Source: Flavobacterium sp. (GTDB lineage Bacteria > Bacteroidota > Bacteroidia > Flavobacteriales > Flavobacteriaceae). Taken from it: a stretch of DNA of 64,000 nucleotides. Location: the NCBI RefSeq assembly GCF_027483985.1, contig NZ_JAIXTJ010000021.1:1-64000 (forward strand), given 5' to 3'. Below are positions 1,612 to 24,791 of this stretch, in pieces. A model generated the notes under the pieces. That model searched no databases and was not told the origin of the DNA. It worked only from the letters and a program-made list of their open reading frames with translations. The position numbers and the translations under genes were made by a program. Each line of letters starts with the position of its first letter. The first letter of the stretch is position 1.

Positions 1612-3465
1612 ATGTCAAGCATAATTCAATTACTTCCTGATCATGTTGCTAACCAAATTGCCGCTGGAGAAGTTGTGCAACGTCCAGCTTCTGTAGTAAA
1701 AGAATTGTTAGAAAACGCTGTTGATGCTGGCGCTACTGATATCAAGTTAATTATAAAAGATGCCGGAAAATCATTAGTCCAAGTCATTGACAATGGCAAA
1801 GGAATGAGTATTACCGATTCTAGATTGTGTTTTGAACGTCATGCAACTTCTAAAATTCGTCAAGCGGAAGATTTATTTTCATTACATACCAAAGGTTTTC
1901 GTGGTGAAGCTTTAGCATCAATTGCTGCGATTGCTCACGTCGAAATGAAAACCAAGCAAGATCAAGACGAATTAGGAACACATATAATAATAGAAGGAAG
2001 TAAATTCATCTCACAAGAACCTTCTGTTTTGCCAAATGGAACATCGTTTGCTATTAAAAATTTGTTTTTTAATATTCCGGCGCGACGTAATTTTTTAAAG
2101 TCCGAAACAGTTGAATTTAGACATATTGTTGATGAGTTTCAACGTGTAGCATTGGCGCATCCTACAATTTATTTTACAATGTATCACAACGGAAGTGAAA
2201 TGTTTAATCTTCCTAATTCTAATATTCGCCAACGAATTGTCAATGTTTTTTCTGGTAAAACCAACGAAAAATTAGTTCCTGTTCAAGAAGAAACCGAAAT
2301 CGTGACAATTCAAGGATTTGTCGGAAAACCAGAATTTGCTAAGAAAAATCGTGGTGAGCAATTCTTTTTTGTAAATGATCGATTTATTAAAAGTGGTTAT
2401 TTGCATCACGCCGTTATGGCTGCTTATGAAGGTTTGTTACCTAATGGCTCGCAACCTACTTATTTTATTTATTTAAATGTGCCGCCCAATACTATTGACA
2501 TCAACATTCATCCTACCAAAACTGAGATAAAATTTGACGATGAACACGCCTTGTATGCTATTTTGCGTTCAACTATAAAACACAGTTTAGGTCAGTTTAA
2601 TGTGGTACCAACTCTTGATTTTGATAGAGATCCAAATTTAGACACACCTTATCAATATCAAAATAAAAAGGCTGATTATCCAACTATTCAAGTCGATAGC
2701 ACTTATAATCCATTTGCAGAAGAAAAGCCTTCAAAACAGTTTTCAGGTGGTACTTCTTATAGAAAACAAGAAGTTATTGGATCAAGTTGGGAAAGTTTGT
2801 ATGTTGGTTTAAAAAATGATATTGCCGAAGTGGAACCTTTTGCCTTTGAAAATGAAGAAGTAACTGCATCATTATTTGACGAGAAAGAAGAGGAGCAATC
2901 GGTAAAACGAACGTATCAAATCCACAAAAAATACATTGTAAGTCCGATAAAATCTGGAATGGTTATTATTGACCAAGGTCGAGCGCATCAACGTGTTTTA
3001 TATGAACAGTTTTTGACTAATATGACTGTAAATCAAGCGTCAAGCCAGCAATTGTTGTTTCCTTTACAATTATTTTTTTCAAATAATGAAATGAAGTTGC
3101 TAGCCGAATTACAGCCTTCTTTAATCAATACTGGTTTTATATTTGAATCTTTTGGTGTGGATTCAATTAACGTATCAGGTATTCCTGTGAATACTACTGA
3201 AAGTGAAGTTTCTATAGTTTTAGAACAATTATTATCTGATTTACAAGACGGAATTCCGGATAGTAGTTTTAGTCAAAATGATACTATAGCTAAATCTATG
3301 GCCAAAAGTTTAGCCGTAAAAACCGGAACTTATTTAACCGAAAAAGAACAAGAAAGTTTGGTAAATAATCTTTTTGCCTGCAAAGAACCTAATGTTTCTC
3401 CCTTTCATAAACCTACTTTCATCACGATGCGTGTGGAAGATATTGATAAACGATTTGCCTTATGA
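1612..3465 (+). CDS. mutL: DNA mismatch repair protein MutL
   Basis: MutL (617 residues from ATG 1612) is the ATP-driven coordinator of mismatch repair. The N-terminal GHKL ATPase is clear: VANQIAAGEVVQRPASVVKE, then ELLENAVDAG with the Mg/ATP Asn, DNGKGM, the ATP lid TKGFRGEALASIA, and the C-terminal part of the ATPase domain with HPTKTEIKF. A variable linker follows (about 350-420) and then a dimerisation domain. The end of that domain has FACKEPNVSPFHKPTF, resembling the CPHGRP zinc region of endonucleolytic MutL proteins but without the exact signature. An in-frame TTG at 1534 lies before the likely promoter and is rejected. The stop overlaps the next start (ATGA), so it is translationally coupled to the rhomboid gene. 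Confidence 0.97.
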   Translation: MSSIIQLLPDHVANQIAAGEVVQRPASVVKELLENAVDAGATDIKLIIKDAGKSLVQVIDNGKGMSITDSRLCFERHATSKIRQAEDLFSLHTKGFRGEALASIAAIAHVEMKTKQDQDELGTHIIIEGSKFISQEPSVLPNGTSFAIKNLFFNIPARRNFLKSETVEFRHIVDEFQRVALAHPTIYFTMYHNGSEMFNLPNSNIRQRIVNVFSGKTNEKLVPVQEETEIVTIQGFVGKPEFAKKNRGEQFFFVNDRFIKSGYLHHAVMAAYEGLLPNGSQPTYFIYLNVPPNTIDINIHPTKTEIKFDDEHALYAILRSTIKHSLGQFNVVPTLDFDRDPNLDTPYQYQNKKADYPTIQVDSTYNPFAEEKPSKQFSGGTSYRKQEVIGSSWESLYVGLKNDIAEVEPFAFENEEVTASLFDEKEEEQSVKRTYQIHKKYIVSPIKSGMVIIDQGRAHQRVLYEQFLTNMTVNQASSQQLLFPLQLFFSNNEMKLLAELQPSLINTGFIFESFGVDSINVSGIPVNTTESEVSIVLEQLLSDLQDGIPDSSFSQNDTIAKSMAKSLAVKTGTYLTEKEQESLVNNLFACKEPNVSPFHKPTFITMRVEDIDKRFAL

Positions 3466-4265
3466 TGAATATAACTCCTGTTGTTAAACAACTATTGATT
3501 CTTAATATTATCTTTTTTATTGGAAGTCAAATAGTGCCCATTGCAGATACTTATTTTGCTTTATACTATTTTGAAAACCCAATGTTTAAATTTTGGCAAC
3601 TTTTAACTCATATGTTTATGCACGGCGGAGTTTCTCATATTTTCTTTAATATGTTGGCTCTGTTTTCTTTTGGTAGTGCTTTAGAACATTATTGGGGCGG
3701 AACGAAATTTTTATTTTTTTATATTTCTTGCGGATTAGGTGCGGCTTTGTTGCACACAGGTGTGAATTATATAGAAATACATTCGCTATTAAATTCCGTA
3801 TCTGAATTAAATCTAACAGAGGCTGATTTAAAAGTGTTATTGAATTCTGACTTTCGAAATGTTTTTGACGATAATGGAAAAATGTTACCATCAAATTATC
3901 AAGTTATTTTAGATAGAGTTAAATGTACGCAGGAACAATTTGACATAATTGCAAACGCTAATATAATTTCAAGAACGCCTGCGGTTGGTGCATCAGGTGC
4001 TATTTATGGATTGTTAGTAGCATTTGCATTTATGTTTCCTATGGCTGAATTGGGTATAATGTTTATTCCAATTCCTATAAAAGCTAAATATTTTGTTCCT
4101 GGTGTGCTTTGTGTTGATTTATTTTTAGGATTAAAAGGACAATCAATTTTTGGTGGCGGAAGTACAGGAATAGCCCATTTTGCTCACCTTGGTGGCGCAC
4201 TAACAGGATTTATTATGATGTGGATTTGGAGAAATAATAAGTTTAAACATAATCGTTGGAACTAA
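3462..4265 (+). CDS. Rhomboid-family intramembrane serine protease (first of two)
   Basis: This polytopic protease has 267 residues and about six helices. The catalytic serine is Ser178 in GASGAIYG and the catalytic histidine is His242 in AHFAHLGGALTGF. The HMFMHGGVSHIFFNMLALF motif of loop 1/helix 2 is conserved. A hydrophilic insert of about 65 residues (about 102-170) sits before the serine helix, longer than in compact rhomboids. It overlaps mutL by 4 nt (ATGA) and the second rhomboid by 1 nt (TAATG), so the three genes look co-translated. Its substrates cannot be read from sequence. Confidence 0.93.
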   Translation: MMNITPVVKQLLILNIIFFIGSQIVPIADTYFALYYFENPMFKFWQLLTHMFMHGGVSHIFFNMLALFSFGSALEHYWGGTKFLFFYISCGLGAALLHTGVNYIEIHSLLNSVSELNLTEADLKVLLNSDFRNVFDDNGKMLPSNYQVILDRVKCTQEQFDIIANANIISRTPAVGASGAIYGLLVAFAFMFPMAELGIMFIPIPIKAKYFVPGVLCVDLFLGLKGQSIFGGGSTGIAHFAHLGGALTGFIMMWIWRNNKFKHNRWN

Positions 4266-20462: not shown

Positions 20463-21549
20463 AATCAATATAGTCCTTTTCGGAATCGGAAATGTAGGAA
20501 GTACTTTAATAAATCAAGTTTTAGAAAGTCAGAAATTCTTTTTAGAAAAGAGAAATATCGAACTTCGATTTCCGATAATTACCAATTCAACTTTAGCTTT
20601 TTTCGAAAAAGATGGAATTAAAAACCAGTGGGAAGCTAATTTTGCACAATCGGCAATTCCTTTCAAAGTTGAAGATATTATTGATTATGTGAAAGAATTA
20701 GAATTAGAAAACATAATAGCTGTTGATGCAACGGCAAGTGCTGATATTTTAAAAAGTTATATTCCGTTGCTTCAAAACGGATTTAATATTGTTGCTGCCA
20801 ATAAAAAAGCCAATACACAGCATTTAGACTTTTATAATGATTTAAGAAGAATAGCTAAGAAATTTGACAAATCATTTTTGTATGAAACCAATGTTGGAGC
20901 AGGGTTACCAGTGATTCAAACCATTAGCGATTTGTATTATTCAGGTGAAAAAATAACTAAAATTAGAGGTGTTTTTTCAGGTTCGTTGAGTTATATTTTT
21001 AATAGATTTTCAAATGAAAAAGAACCATTTTCAAAGATTTTGGTCGACGCCGAAAAACTTGGATTAACTGAACCCGATTCGAGAGAAGATTTATCAGGAA
21101 CCGATGTAGCAAGAAAACTATTAATTCTTGCACGAGAGTTAGGACAAAAAGTGGAATTATCAGATATTAATGTAGCTTCATTATTACTTCCAGAATTAAA
21201 TGAAAAACATTCGAAAGCGCAGTATGCTGTTAACAAATCATTATTTGATAAACCTTTCAATATTGCCAAAATTACACAAGCTGACAATCACACCTTGCGC
21301 TATGTTGGTGATTTAGATTTAGAGAAAAACCAATTAGAAGTAAAACTAATTTCGGTACCAAAAACAACTGCCTTAGGACAACTAAAAGGAGCAGATAACT
21401 TAATCGAAATTTATACTAAATCCTATGGTGAAATACCCATCGTAATTCAAGGTGCTGGAGCAGGAAAAGCGGTAACTGCAAGAGGAGTTTTATCTGATAT
21501 CCTTAAAGTAGCAGAGAAAATTAAGATAAAAAATGAGGTTTGGGTTTAA
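20449..21549 (+). CDS. hom: Homoserine dehydrogenase
   Basis: Homoserine dehydrogenase (366 residues) reduces aspartate semialdehyde to homoserine, the branch point to Met and Thr. It has the Rossmann motif LFGIGNVGSTLI, VAANKKANT, the substrate segment GAGLPVIQTISDL, GVFSGSLSYIFN and the LTEPDSREDLSGTDVARKLL segment. There is no fused aspartokinase and no clear C-terminal ACT domain, so allosteric control is probably reduced and transcript-level attenuation may be the main control. It overlaps metX by 14 nt and is followed by a terminator. Confidence 0.95.
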   Translation: MSTLRINIVLFGIGNVGSTLINQVLESQKFFLEKRNIELRFPIITNSTLAFFEKDGIKNQWEANFAQSAIPFKVEDIIDYVKELELENIIAVDATASADILKSYIPLLQNGFNIVAANKKANTQHLDFYNDLRRIAKKFDKSFLYETNVGAGLPVIQTISDLYYSGEKITKIRGVFSGSLSYIFNRFSNEKEPFSKILVDAEKLGLTEPDSREDLSGTDVARKLLILARELGQKVELSDINVASLLLPELNEKHSKAQYAVNKSLFDKPFNIAKITQADNHTLRYVGDLDLEKNQLEVKLISVPKTTALGQLKGADNLIEIYTKSYGEIPIVIQGAGAGKAVTARGVLSDILKVAEKIKIKNEVWV

Positions 21550-21640: not shown

Positions 21641-21667
21641 AAATATTTGCACTCGAAAATTAACAAT
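21641..21667 (+). promoter_or_regulatory. Promoter-like element P1 for leader 3
   Basis: AATATTTGCACTC is one mismatch from the TAnnTTTG box and shares the ATTTGCACTC context of the ychF promoter (46244). It lies about 40 nt before the leader 3 ATG. A near copy occurs at 21929-21954. Confidence 0.5.
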
Positions 21668-21687
21668 AACCATTTAAACGAAGAAAA

Positions 21688-21771
21688 ATGTTTGTATTCA
21701 ATTCATTCTCACAAAGCTTCACACCGGTAGGAACTGGTGCAGCACTTCTTCGTGGCTTATTTCAATCATAG
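21688..21771 (+). CDS. Leader peptide 3 upstream of rtcB (27 aa)
   Basis: This small ORF encodes MFVFNSFSQSFTPVGTGAAL followed by LRGLFQS and a TAG. It starts after an A-rich GAAGAAAAATG context. No single amino acid dominates as in the met leaders, though four Phe and three Ser fall in the first eleven codons. A hairpin CACCGGT (21722-21728)/ACTGGTG (21733-21739) with an AGGA loop lies in its middle. The end of the ORF can unpair the terminator that follows. I infer a regulatory leader; I do not recognise the peptide from any family. Confidence 0.65.
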   Translation: MFVFNSFSQSFTPVGTGAALLRGLFQS

Positions 21772-21827
21772 AAATTTACTTTTAAAAATATGAAAAAGCC
21801 CGAAGATATTTAGTTTCGGGCTTTTTT
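21747..21827 (+). promoter_or_regulatory. Transcription attenuator 3 upstream of rtcB-prfH
   Basis: The terminator has perfect 10-bp arms, AAAGCCCGAA (21795-21804) and TTCGGGCTTT (21815-21824), and a T tail to 21827. The competing antiterminator is TCTTCG (21747-21752) with CGAAGA (21801-21806) plus GGCTT (21754-21758) with AAGCC (21796-21800), 11 bp with a single bulged T. The upstream strand lies 11-22 nt before the leader stop, where a terminating ribosome would hide it. Confidence 0.75.
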
Positions 21828-21928
21828 GTATTTATTCTAGACACTTCACAAAATTTTCCCGAACAAAGTTCATTTACTCTTTCCGTAATCGGAACGAGAT
21901 GCCTTGCCGTTATTTTATGCTTTCGCAG

Positions 21929-21954
21929 AAATAATTGCACTCAAAAATAACAAT
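21929..21954 (+). promoter_or_regulatory. Second promoter-like element P2 before rtcB
   Basis: This 26-nt stretch nearly duplicates 21641-21667 (two substitutions and one deleted base) and lies 12 nt before the rtcB ATG. Its -7 box is weaker (TAATTG). It may be a second promoter that bypasses the attenuator, or the trace of a duplication. Confidence 0.4.
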
Positions 21955-21965
21955 GTTAAAAATTT

Positions 21966-23357
21966 ATGGGAAATAAATTAACCGGAAGAGACCTAATAAA
22001 ATTAGGCTTTCCAAAGAATAACAGTATCAATATTGCTTTAGGACAAATAAGCAGGTACCGTAAAAGAGAAAAAAAAGACAGTATCATTAACGAAGCCAAA
22101 GATGTGCTTTTACATCCCGAGAACTATAAAAACAACGGAACTTGGGGCAAAGTAGCCGAAGGATTGGTCAACCCAGTTCAAGTGCGAATGCATCAATTGC
22201 AAACCACACGTGCACCATTTTCAATATTTGGTGAAAACGAAATCGACGAACAAGCCAAGTTTCAATTGTATGATGCTTTAAAGTTGCCAATATCCGTTGC
22301 TGGAGCATTGATGCCCGATGCACATTCGGGTTACGGATTGCCAATTGGCGGAGTTTTAGCTACAGACAATGCGGTTATTCCGTATGGAGTTGGAGTCGAT
22401 ATTGGTTGCCGAATGAGTTTATCGATTTTCGATTTACCAGCGTCGTTCATCAAAGGAAAAGACCATCAGTTGCAAGCCATTTTGAAAGAGCACACCAAGT
22501 TCGGAATGAACGAAACGCACGCCATAAAAGCCGATCACGAGATTTTCTCAAGGTCAGAATTTCAAGACATTCCGTTGCTAAAAAGTTTGCAGACCAAAGC
22601 CTACAAACAGCTAGGAACATCTGGTGGCGGAAACCATTTCGTTGAATTCGGAATCGTTCAATTAGACACACCATTACCCGAGTGGAAGTTAGAAGCAGGA
22701 AGTTATTTCTGCGTTTTATCACACAGTGGTTCACGCGGAATGGGCGCCAATATTGCAAAACATTACACGTATCTGGCAACAAAACAATGTCCGTTACCCA
22801 AAAATGTACAGCATTTGGCGTGGCTCGATTTGAACACACACGATGGTCAGGAATATTGGTTGGCAATGAATTTAGCTGGCGATTATGCCAAAGCCTGTCA
22901 CGATAACATTCACAAACGAATCGCCAAAGCCATCGGAAAGCGCATCGTGGTAACCATAGAAAACCACCACAATTTTGCGTGGAAAGAAATGGTAAACGGC
23001 AAAGAATGCATCGTTCATAGAAAAGGCGCAACACCTGCACACCAAGGAACACTCGGAATCATTCCAGGTTCGATGACTGCGCCAGGTTATATCGTTATGG
23101 GAAAAGGATATCCTGAAGCACTAAATTCTGCATCACACGGCGCAGGAAGATTATTTTCGAGAGCCAAATGCAAGGCAAATTTCACGCCAAGTCAGATCAA
23201 AAAAGTCTTAGCAAATCACGAGGTACAACTAATCGGAGGCAATGTAGACGAAGCGCCAATGGCCTACAAAGACATCAATAAAGTTATGGCTTTGCAAACT
23301 GAGTTGGTTACTGTTTTAGGAACATTCACACCAAAAATCGTGCGAATGGATAAATAA
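21966..23357 (+). CDS. rtcB: RNA ligase RtcB (RtcB2-type, paired with PrfH)
   Basis: RtcB (463 residues) joins 2',3'-cyclic-phosphate RNA ends to 5'-OH ends using GTP and Mn. Metal ligands are visible at Asp118 (MPDAHSGYG), Cys148 (VDIGCRM), His224 (GGGNHFVEFG), His253 (LSHSGSRGMG) and in IENHHNFAWK (334-335). The guanylylated histidine is His391 in NSASHGAGRLFS. Linkage to prfH marks it as the RtcB2 type, which published work implicates in resealing rRNA cut at the ribosome decoding centre. No RtcR-type activator is nearby. Its codon use looks somewhat richer in G/C than neighbouring genes, compatible with transfer. Confidence 0.94.
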   Translation: MGNKLTGRDLIKLGFPKNNSINIALGQISRYRKREKKDSIINEAKDVLLHPENYKNNGTWGKVAEGLVNPVQVRMHQLQTTRAPFSIFGENEIDEQAKFQLYDALKLPISVAGALMPDAHSGYGLPIGGVLATDNAVIPYGVGVDIGCRMSLSIFDLPASFIKGKDHQLQAILKEHTKFGMNETHAIKADHEIFSRSEFQDIPLLKSLQTKAYKQLGTSGGGNHFVEFGIVQLDTPLPEWKLEAGSYFCVLSHSGSRGMGANIAKHYTYLATKQCPLPKNVQHLAWLDLNTHDGQEYWLAMNLAGDYAKACHDNIHKRIAKAIGKRIVVTIENHHNFAWKEMVNGKECIVHRKGATPAHQGTLGIIPGSMTAPGYIVMGKGYPEALNSASHGAGRLFSRAKCKANFTPSQIKKVLANHEVQLIGGNVDEAPMAYKDINKVMALQTELVTVLGTFTPKIVRMDK

Positions 23358-23390: not shown

Positions 23391-23479
23391 TGGGCATTAT
23401 CAGCCATCCATTTTCCTGCTTTTCGTTGCAATCTCGCCAAGAAAAATGGCGAGGATTTCCACTACAATCAGGGCTATTA
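23391..23479 (-). repeat. Dispersed flavobacterial intergenic element, copy A
   Basis: Read on the minus strand it starts TAGCCCTGATTGTAGTGG, passes a hairpin (CTCGCC 23433-23438 with GGCGAG 23448-23453) and ends in AAAAGCAGGAAAAT with an ATGCCC tail. A second copy lies at 28533-28594. I remember many such TAGCCCTGATTG...AGCAGGA elements in flavobacterial genomes. It may correspond to a structured RNA family such as Flavo-1, which I cannot verify. Confidence 0.6.
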
Positions 23480-23516: not shown

Positions 23517-24218
23517 ATGGACAAAATAATTCAAATAACAGCAGGTCGCGGACCAGCAGAATGCACTTGGGTTGCCGCTCAAGTGCTCAAAAAAGTGTTG
23601 GAAGAAGCACACGAAAATCAATTGGAAGCCACAGTGCTACAACGAGAATCGGGACAAGAAAACGGAACAGTAACTTCTTCTTTATTAATGGTAAAAGGAA
23701 AATCAGTAGATCAGTTTATTGCATCTTGGTCAGGAACCATTCAGTGGATTGGTCAAAGCAATTTCAGAAAAATGCACAAACGCAAAAATTGGTTTATCGG
23801 TGTTTTTGAAATTGAGAGTTTACAAATAAAAACAATCTCAGAAAAAGACATTCAATACCAAGCGATGCGTAGTTCTGGCGCTGGCGGACAACACGTCAAC
23901 AAAGTGAGTTCGGCAATTAGAGCAACACATCTTCCAACAGGAATAAGTGTGGTATCAATGGATTCGCGTTCGCAACACCAAAACAAGAAATTGGCAACCG
24001 AACGATTAATAGAAAAATTCAAAATTTCCGAATTGCAACAAATAAAGCAACAAGCCAGCAACCAATGGGAAAACCAATTGAATGTGCAACGTGGCAATCC
24101 AACACGAACTTTCAAAGGTTCTGATTTTAAAAAAGAAAAAGTAGTGAAAAGCTACAAATCAGAACGGCAAACCGCAAAAGCGGAATTAACAAAAAATATC
24201 AAACAGATTAGCGACTAA
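23517..24218 (+). CDS. prfH: Peptide chain release factor homolog PrfH
   Basis: This 233-residue class I release-factor homolog has the peptidyl-tRNA hydrolysis motif GGQ at residues 123-125 (SSGAGGQHVNKVSSAIR). It lacks the full codon-recognition domain of RF1/RF2. The N-terminal ITAGRGPAECTWVAAQVL region fits PrfH. PrfH proteins release peptides from ribosomes damaged at the decoding centre, after which RtcB reseals the rRNA. It lies 159 nt after rtcB on the same strand, with a dispersed element in the gap. The C-terminus is a basic helix like that of RF-type rescue factors. Confidence 0.93.
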   Translation: MDKIIQITAGRGPAECTWVAAQVLKKVLEEAHENQLEATVLQRESGQENGTVTSSLLMVKGKSVDQFIASWSGTIQWIGQSNFRKMHKRKNWFIGVFEIESLQIKTISEKDIQYQAMRSSGAGGQHVNKVSSAIRATHLPTGISVVSMDSRSQHQNKKLATERLIEKFKISELQQIKQQASNQWENQLNVQRGNPTRTFKGSDFKKEKVVKSYKSERQTAKAELTKNIKQISD

Positions 24219-24251: not shown

Positions 24252-24791
24252 ATGAAAACAGTTGATAAATACCTTTTTCAAGCCTTGGATAACTATCCGT
24301 ATTGGTTGGAAGGAACCATCGAATCCTTAGATTACGCTTTGTCCTACAACGACAAAAACGTAATGGCTTTGTGTTTGTATGGTAGAATCCAAACTGAGCA
24401 ATTGCACGATTATGAAGAAGCGAAACGTTATTTTCAAGAAGCATTAGCGATCGATATTCATGCGGTTGCAGTATATCCGTATTATTTGGATGCTTTACTT
24501 TTAAACGAAGATTACGACGAAGCATCCAAGCTAATTGATTTTGCTTTGACCATAAAAGGCATTAACAAAGTAGTAATTATGCTTAGAAAAGTATTCTTAT
24601 TGGAACAACAAAGAGAATTCAAGAAAGCAGTTAAATTGCTAAAAGAGATTAAGCTTTTACTAACGGCAAACGACAATTCCTACGAAGTAGAAGAAACCGA
24701 AAAGCGACTAAAAGCTAAATTGGAATTGCTAAAACCAAAGAAAAAAGCAAAATCTAAAAAAGATGGTGACAAGAAAAAGAAGAAGAATTGA
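24252..24791 (+). CDS. TPR-like protein, third gene of the rtcB-prfH cassette
   Basis: This soluble 179-residue helical protein has TPR-like repeats (ALCLYGRIQTEQLHDYEEAK followed by RYFQEALAID) and a very lysine-rich C-terminal tail (KPKKKAKSKKDGDKKKKKN). The poly-Lys tail suggests RNA or ribosome contact. It is co-oriented with prfH 33 nt upstream and is followed by a terminator, so it probably belongs to the cassette. Whether it helps RtcB/PrfH is unknown. No signal peptide or membrane segment is seen. Confidence 0.8.
   Translation: MKTVDKYLFQALDNYPYWLEGTIESLDYALSYNDKNVMALCLYGRIQTEQLHDYEEAKRYFQEALAIDIHAVAVYPYYLDALLLNEDYDEASKLIDFALTIKGINKVVIMLRKVFLLEQQREFKKAVKLLKEIKLLLTANDNSYEVEETEKRLKAKLELLKPKKKAKSKKDGDKKKKKN

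What the first reader, a model, noticed from the sequence alone, without database searches (positions are those of the whole stretch)
21641..21966. Putative ribosome-sensing attenuator in front of rtcB-prfH
A 27-codon ORF (21688-21771) is followed by a strong terminator (21795-21827). The last third of the ORF (TCTTCG and GGCTT, 21747-21758) can pair with the terminator 5' arm over 11 bp with one bulge. A ribosome that finishes the ORF masks that strand and allows termination; ribosomes that stall early or fail to initiate leave it free for antitermination. The genes controlled encode RtcB and PrfH, whose published role is rescue and repair of ribosomes damaged at the decoding centre. The leader would therefore induce the repair system when translation fails, replacing the RtcR activator used elsewhere. 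The pairings are seen; the sensing role is inferred. I know of no description of this.
Basis: partly seen in the sequence, partly recalled or inferred. Interest (0 to 1): 0.93.

Follow-up and report, generated by a model that had tools for sequence, protein, structure and literature searches.

The report
Ribosome-sensing switch before ribosome-repair genes
In front of genes likely to mend damaged ribosomes, many flavobacteria carry the same kind of short RNA leader with a tiny gene inside it, which is predicted to switch the repair genes on when ribosomes start reading that tiny gene but stall.

Summary
A covariance model of the leader, searched genome-wide, matched 83 of 395 genomes of the window's order (inferred Flavobacteriales) at E<=5.3e-7; 82 of the 83 stand before an RtcB gene. 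The small ORF is present in 99 of 100 aligned leaders, in frame with the antiterminator strand in 96 of 99, with the stop codon exactly 21 nt past a fixed point in 86 of 99. The antiterminator pairing, not built into the model, covaries. At one position strands 2-5 change together. Best reading: ribosome-mediated transcription attenuation that senses ribosomes which initiate but stall. Whether failed initiation also induces is open. No peptide or control-codon run is shared by the leaders. There is a precedent: in Pseudomonas aeruginosa an RtcB-like gene plus prfH (PA5471/armZ-PA5470) is reported to be controlled by a ribosome-sensing leader, PA5471.1. This is a new variant of that kind. Nothing was tested at the bench.

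The parts
21642..21649 (+). promoter-like -7 box AATATTTG (Bacteroidota consensus TAnnTTTG, one mismatch)
   Evidence: [TA]AnnTTTG lies within 60 nt before element 1 in 94 of 100 leaders (exact TAnnTTTG in 63), against 5.7% of mononucleotide shuffles; consensus from passages of PMC9723704
21678..21685 (+). element 1, ACGAAGAA, beside the leader start codon; pairs with element 2
   Evidence: ends 2-5 nt before the start codon in 95 of the 97 leaders with a letter at that alignment column
21688..21771 (+). leader ORF, 27 codons plus TAG
   Evidence: an ORF through element 2 in 99 of 100 aligned leaders
21722..21739 (+). hairpin H inside the ORF (7 bp, -8.2 kcal/mol)
   Evidence: 94.3% of cells paired, all 7 pairs with changes on both sides, on an alignment fitted to it; energy
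21746..21758 (+). element 2, TTCTTCGTGGCTT: pairs with element 1 or element 3
21794..21806 (+). element 3, AAAAGCCCGAAGA: terminator 5' arm; pairs with element 2 or element 4
21814..21827 (+). element 4, TTTCGGGC and U tract: terminator 3' arm; pairs with element 3 or element 5
   Evidence: at least 6 T in 8 nt in 98 of 99
21858..21863 (+). element 5, CCCGAA, complementary to element 4
   Evidence: exact complement of at least 7 nt in 72 of 100 leaders against 8.3% of dinucleotide shuffles; at least 6 nt in 89 against 27.8%; mean 7.66 against 5.12. In the window itself the match is 6 nt, which 16 of 40 shuffles reach
21966..23357 (+). rtcB (PF01139), first gene controlled
23517..24218 (+). prfH (RF-1 domain PF00472)
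24252..24791 (+). TPR protein, third gene of the likely operon
   Evidence: a relative lies downstream in 66 of the 74 leader loci fetched with up to 7 kb downstream

Best explanation
The leader is a conserved RNA with a 27-codon ORF and five complementary strands that is predicted to act as a ribosome-dependent transcription attenuator of rtcB-prfH-TPR. Inferred mechanism: (a) A ribosome that translates to the stop codon covers strand 2, so terminator 3:4 forms and the repair genes stay off. (b) A ribosome that initiates but stalls in roughly the first 14 codons covers strand 1, or keeps it from strand 2, and leaves strand 2 free; 2:3 forms, RNA polymerase reads through, and rtcB-prfH-TPR is made. 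(c) With no ribosome, 1:2 forms first and would tend to keep the genes off, but this step is unresolved. (d) In read-through RNA, 4:5 would hold strand 4 and stabilise the ON fold. The likely signal is general failure of elongation (damaged decoding centre, drugs), because neither a run of one codon nor one peptide is shared by the leaders. Shown here: the strands, their conservation and covariation, ORF frame and stop geometry, gene association. Inferred: translation, termination, induction by stalling, and the link to ribosome damage.
For: Genome-wide CM search: 83 of 395 genomes of the order at E<=5.3e-7 (recounted), 82 of these before an RtcB of at least 45% identity. ORF in 99 of 100; CTTC in frame in 96 of 99; stop 21 nt after its C in 86 of 99. 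2:3, not in the model, covaries; on an RtcB tree of 93 loci it has 6 inferred double compensatory changes. Strands 2-3-4-5 read G-C-G-C in 69 and A-T-A-T in 10 of 100. Footprint folding before strand 4 is made: mean P(2:3) 0.91 with a ribosome at start, 0.02 at stop, falling after about codon 14. Codons 2-9 of the 52 25-codon ORFs show no bias towards third positions (changes at codon positions 1/2/3: 472/505/567). Fulvivirga L191, order Cytophagales, has the same architecture in other letters, judged by eye. Precedent with published induction data: PA5471.1-armZ-prfH.
Against: No transcript, ribosome profile or reporter was seen for this leader. Alignment A7 was fitted to 1:2, H and 3:4, so their counts lean that way. 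The outer pairs of 1:2 are weak: 18 inferred changes to unpaired, 17 of them at its two end pairs. Before strand 4 is made, 2:3 beats 1:2 at equilibrium even with no ribosome (P 0.87). In the window's own leader 3:4 wins at equilibrium even with a ribosome at the start (P(3:4) 0.91), so antitermination there must be kinetic. Strand 5 is transcribed after the termination decision, so its role is unexplained; 3 of 100 read A-T-A-C, where it does not follow. In 25-codon ORFs codons 10-18 and 19-25 do show synonymous bias (359 to 177 and 347 to 96), so a peptide effect near the stop is not excluded. Six of 105 leaders have no RtcB of that kind downstream.
Confidence: 0.74

Rival explanations
1. 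Amino-acid-specific attenuator (trp/his type): the ORF senses shortage of one charged tRNA.
For: Same topology as amino-acid attenuators (recalled); the window ORF has five Phe codons.
Against: Peptides differ between lineages and I see no repeated codon common to them (by eye); codons 2-9 drift freely in the 25-codon group; the genes are RNA repair, not biosynthesis.
Confidence: 0.05
2. Nascent-peptide sensor: the peptide itself arrests the ribosome near its end when a drug or damage is present, as RLR peptides do for macrolides.
For: LRG or LRD near the C-terminus in many leaders; synonymous bias in codons 10-25 of the 25-codon group.
Against: Those codons overlap H and strand 2, where RNA pairing explains part of it; three of 99 leaders encode the strand in another frame; a stall there would hide strand 2 and keep the genes off.
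Confidence: 0.1
3. The terminator belongs to a separate small-protein or sRNA gene, and rtcB has its own promoter after it.
For: A TTGCACTC-like repeat of the leader's promoter region lies just before rtcB (21935-21954); leader and terminator could stand alone.
Against: The position before an RtcB gene is kept in 82 of 83 strong hits; 2:3 and 4:5 pairings make no sense for a plain terminator.
Confidence: 0.05
4. Protein- or ligand-binding RNA (autoregulation by RtcB or PrfH), with the ORF incidental.
For: Strongly structured; strand 5 is not needed for a simple attenuator.
Against: ORF frame and stop position are held to the nucleotide in 86 of 99, which a ribosome-free switch would not need.
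Confidence: 0.06

Closest known systems
PA5471.1 leader of PA5471 (armZ, RtcB-like) - PA5470 (prfH), Pseudomonas aeruginosa
   Same: Leader ORF, alternative RNA folds and a 3:4 terminator before an RtcB-like gene followed by prfH on one message; reported induced by ribosome-targeting drugs and ribosome stalling (passages and one section of PMC12057347, passages of PMC3516279 and PMC13041342).
   Different: 13-aa leader peptide about 250 bp upstream; ArmZ is described as a MexZ anti-repressor. A stop at codon 3, or deletion, of PA5471.1 raises ArmZ, whereas here strand 1 may keep an untranslated leader off. The review says the attenuation still needs confirmation. No sequence comparison with PA5471.1 was made here. 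The passages seen do not describe a start-codon strand 1 or a strand 5.
vmlR and hflXr (rli80) ribosome-sensing attenuators
   Same: uORF, anti-antiterminator, antiterminator and terminator controlling a ribosome-rescue or protection factor (abstract and headings of PMC9226507; passages of PMC6310831). In rli80 the start-codon mutant cannot be induced.
   Different: Induced by cognate antibiotics (RLR peptide in rli80); Gram-positive hosts; other genes; no strand 5 described in what was read.
toiL uORF of topAI-yjhQ, E. coli
   Same: A uORF that senses several kinds of ribosome stall, including at the start codon (abstract and section headings of PMC12121999).
   Different: Acts on a ribosome-binding site and Rho, not an intrinsic terminator.
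trp/his operon attenuators
   Same: Mutually exclusive 1:2, 2:3, 3:4 pairings and a leader ORF (recalled).
   Different: Those have runs of control codons (recalled); none seen here.
Leader-peptide attenuators noted in Flavobacterium psychrophilum
   Same: Same family if the window's family is Flavobacteriaceae; attenuation clues reported before amino-acid operons (passage of PMC9723704).
   Different: rtcB does not occur in that paper's main text; its supplements were not seen.

Membership tests
Ribosome-mediated transcription attenuator | translated short ORF upstream of an intrinsic terminator | tested here: inconclusive
   ORF and terminator conserved with fixed geometry; translation itself not measured
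Ribosome-mediated transcription attenuator | antiterminator strand inside the ORF, pairing with the terminator 5' arm | tested here: met
   89.5% of cells, covariation above slid controls
Ribosome-mediated transcription attenuator | anti-antiterminator / pause pairing (1:2) | tested here: met
   93.2% of cells, 4 of 8 pairs changed on both sides, on a fitted alignment; P(1:2) 0.88 before strand 3 is made; unclear in L155, L158, L159
Ribosome-mediated transcription attenuator | read-through changes with ribosome position | not testable with these tools
   only footprint folding was possible
Amino-acid operon attenuator (trp/his type) | run of control codons for one amino acid | tested here: not met
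   peptides, read by eye
Rfam Thr_leader RF00506 | gathering score 55 | tested here: not met
   29.6 bits on the + strand, 33.4 on the - strand
PA5471.1 leader (P. aeruginosa) as a homologue | common descent of the leader sequence | not tested
   its sequence was not fetched; works like it by published description only

The most novel reading that the evidence does not exclude
A self-diagnosing ribosome-damage sensor: strand 1 sits under the initiating ribosome, so the five-strand switch ({1:2, 3:4} OFF; {2:3, 4:5} ON) would open only for ribosomes that can initiate but cannot elongate, which is what decoding-centre cleavage would give in bacteria that do not rely on Shine-Dalgarno pairing. 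The broken ribosome would itself order its own repair kit, and 4:5 would lock the ON fold.
Probability: 0.4. Interest if true: 0.82.

Novelty: new variant of a known kind. Interest (0 to 1): 0.64.

Why it matters
It gives the rtcB-prfH repair module of these bacteria a likely trigger and makes it testable: stall or cut ribosomes and measure read-through. Together with the published Pseudomonas leader and a differently lettered one in Fulvivirga, it suggests that ribosome-sensing attenuation recurs in front of this module, perhaps by convergence. Strand 5, conserved after the terminator and covarying with it, is a feature I do not know from textbook attenuators (recalled) and asks for an explanation.

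Tried and rejected
Element 5 as a gate on the rtcB start codon: not supported; the start region is 0.56 unpaired with 5 free and 0.57 with 5 blocked, higher by more than 0.05 in 13 of 50 loci tested, although 5 pairs within 20 nt of the start with mean P 0.35 when free (50 of the 63 loci with the rtcB start in range).

4:5 as a second terminator: not general; at least 5 T in the 8 nt after element 5 in 23 of 50.

Rfam: no family above its cut-off in the leader; Thr_leader, MicC and others are below gathering.

Paralogous leaders in the same genome: none at E<=0.001 by BLAST; the second hit is the terminator's own reverse complement.

CM hits outside the order: of 296 genomes drawn from the phylum (relatives of the order included) 24 matched, and only G788 (81 nt, 41 bits) is outside the order; not convincing. 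rtcB-prfH loci of Chitinophaga (L192), Edaphocola (L193), Mucilaginibacter (L195) and unnamed L299 have short ORFs but, by eye, no clear terminator; R2 does not match L191, L192, L193 or L195.

Rows dropped before counts: L156, L157, L160, L161, L162, L163 (6 of the 80 regions), weak model hits without the anatomy by eye and without related genes downstream. The other 74 plus 31 further loci make the 105 leaders. One search was given 100 of the 105 (cap 100; L076, L079, L080, L130, L144, similar to others, left out). Weak hits not examined: G772:C7 (2), G593:C11, G550:C3, G686:C1:5092806, G564:C15:143768, G216:C1:2814062, G755:C1:2606941, G186:C8, G714:C50, G577:C12. In one search (85 of 397 genomes at E<=0.01) I looked at 25 of the 30 loci and kept 15; two weaker hits fetched later (L182, L183) proved to be leaders, so unexamined weak hits may hide more.

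Full report
What is there. I infer Flavobacteriales: the same leader matches the model in two named records, an uncultured Bizionia (L189, 63 bits; Bizionia is Flavobacteriaceae) and a Flavobacteriaceae MAG (L190, 108 bits). After a homoserine-dehydrogenase-like gene that ends at 21549 (name recalled), the order is: promoter-like box, leader, rtcB, prfH, TPR gene.

Conservation. Upstream of rtcB in relatives the same anatomy appears. Of the 15 genomes with a full-length RtcB match at 60% identity or more, 11 carry the leader directly before rtcB. In 2 it stands before an accessory ORF that precedes rtcB (G059; G004). In 2 (G024, G033) a sequence-divergent version, read by eye, stands before a PcfJ-like gene, with CCGGGTT and AACCCGG as strands 2 and 3. 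A covariance model from 24 leaders was run genome-wide, blind to rtcB: 83 of 395 genomes of the order match at E<=5.3e-7, then there is a gap to weak hits at 1e-5; 82 of the 83 precede an RtcB of at least 45% identity. The exception, L110, is an orphan leader. Over all 105 leaders collected, 99 precede such an RtcB. Where up to 7 kb downstream was fetched (74 loci), PrfH was found in 66 and a TPR relative in 66. Three leaders (L155, L158, L159), which lack a clear strand 1, precede the TPR gene and a different RtcB (26-27% identity), so the leader seems to follow RNA repair rather than one gene.

Reading frame. In 99 of 100 aligned leaders an ORF (97 ATG, 2 GTG) runs through strand 2; CTTC is in frame in 96 of 99; the stop begins exactly 21 nt after its C in 86 of 99; strand 1 ends 2-5 nt before the start codon in 95 of 97. 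The peptides differ between lineages. In the 52 25-codon ORFs, codons 2-9 change about as often at positions 1 and 2 as at 3; codons 10-25 are biased to position 3, and they overlap hairpin H and strand 2. In a smaller group of 17 27-codon ORFs the pattern is the reverse: codons 2-9 lean to synonymous change (64 to 44), later codons do not (25 to 62, 21 to 38). Pairwise counts are not independent events.

Pairings. 1:2, H and 3:4 were built into the model, so their counts lean towards it: 95.7% of cells paired, against 36-55% when slid. 2:3 was not: 89.5% paired, 93 cells changed on both sides against 1-16 slid, and 6 double compensatory changes inferred on an RtcB tree of 93 loci. In control (a) two measures are weak: pairs with a change on both sides (17 of 500 shuffles reach it) and further pair types (153 of 500). 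Strand 5: an exact complement to strand 4 of at least 7 nt in 72 of 100 leaders against 8.3% of shuffles, at least 6 nt in 89 against 27.8%; in 82 of 100 it is of at least 6 nt, holds one of a few core motifs that I listed and starts 17-41 nt after the model's end. At one position, strands 2, 3, 4 and 5 read G-C-G-C in 69 and A-T-A-T in 10 of 100; 3 read A-T-A-C and the other 18 are mixed or lack a strand 5.

How it would work. Energies in the window are 1:2 -8.3, H -8.2, 2:3 -12.4, 3:4 -17.6, 4:5 -9.9 kcal/mol, a ladder in order of synthesis up to the terminator. With a 30-nt ribosome footprint and RNA ending before strand 4 (99 leaders), mean P(2:3) is 0.91 with the ribosome at the start codon and 0.02 at the stop, falling between about codons 14 and 19. 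With no ribosome it is 0.87, but 1:2 is already formed before strand 3 exists (P 0.88). With strands 4 and 5 added (86 leaders), no ribosome gives P(3:4) 0.84, ribosome at stop 0.95, ribosome at start P(2:3) 0.47, P(3:4) 0.48 and P(4:5) 0.48. In the window itself 3:4 wins in all three states at equilibrium, so antitermination there would have to be kinetic. The simplest reading is the classical one: completed translation or none gives OFF, a ribosome stalled early gives ON. The clause that no ribosome gives OFF is the least certain.

Relation to known work. RtcB2-PrfH rescues and re-ligates ribosomes cut by colicin E3 (abstract of PMC9223846). TPR and nucleotidyltransferase genes and unknown domains beside RFH-RtcB are already described (passages of PMC6514570). 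The regulation has a close precedent: in P. aeruginosa, PA5471 (armZ, RtcB-like) and PA5470 (prfH) share a polycistronic message; a 13-aa leader, PA5471.1, is reported to link ribosome inhibition to expression by attenuation, with a 3:4 terminator. hflXr and vmlR are further rescue or protection genes under ribosome-sensing attenuators. In the held library, searches for PrfH with RtcB, RtcB with 'leader peptide' or 'attenuator', rtcB with prfH and Flavobacter, and a five-term search listed no title or abstract start that describes a leader before rtcB-prfH in Bacteroidota. Most subscription journals are not held, and supplementary files could not be searched.

Verdict. Real, conserved and very probably a ribosome-sensing attenuator; a new variant of a known kind, with an unexplained fifth strand.

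Noticed in passing
window 23408-23479 (- strand): Flavo-1 RNA (Rfam RF01705, 70.3 bits, cut-off 42) lies between rtcB and prfH; by eye, similar repeat sequence sits between leader and rtcB in some relatives (for example L015, L119).
   Followed up: no
L191, about 3270-3480: Fulvivirga sediminis (Cytophagales): ORF MMVQKIHIALLTGMLAA, GACCGGG/CCCGGTC antiterminator, terminator and a downstream CCCGA before rtcB-prfH: same architecture, other letters, by eye; the model R2 does not match it.
   Followed up: partly
L192, L193, L299 upstream of rtcB-prfH: 14-codon ORFs (MTERIHISPLSPAA, MTEQFNISSLVIAA, MTEQFYISSLFIAA) before rtcB, with an inverted repeat before the ATG and no clear intrinsic terminator; perhaps another ribosome-sensing leader.
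   Followed up: no
L185, L186, L301: PcfJ-led rtcB operons with a second terminator-like hairpin in tandem after the first attenuator, by eye.
   Followed up: no
L111, L118, L119, L127, L150: A protein of about 245-255 aa between leader and rtcB (L119 read only in part); L118's has no Pfam match; relatives in L184, L195 and L300 (31-41% identity).
   Followed up: partly
L110: Orphan leader with no rtcB within 7 kb and no strand 5: perhaps operon loss.
   Followed up: partly
L166: Leader before a GNAT-like gene (name recalled), without strand 5.
   Followed up: no
L167 and L182: One genome (G215) has two leaders, one before a PcfJ-like gene without RtcB in the 7 kb held and one before accessory ORF-rtcB-prfH.
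   Followed up: partly
window 21647-21667 and 21935-21954: TTGCACTC, one base, AAAAT, optional T, AACAAT occurs twice: at the leader promoter and just before rtcB; a possible second promoter.
   Followed up: no
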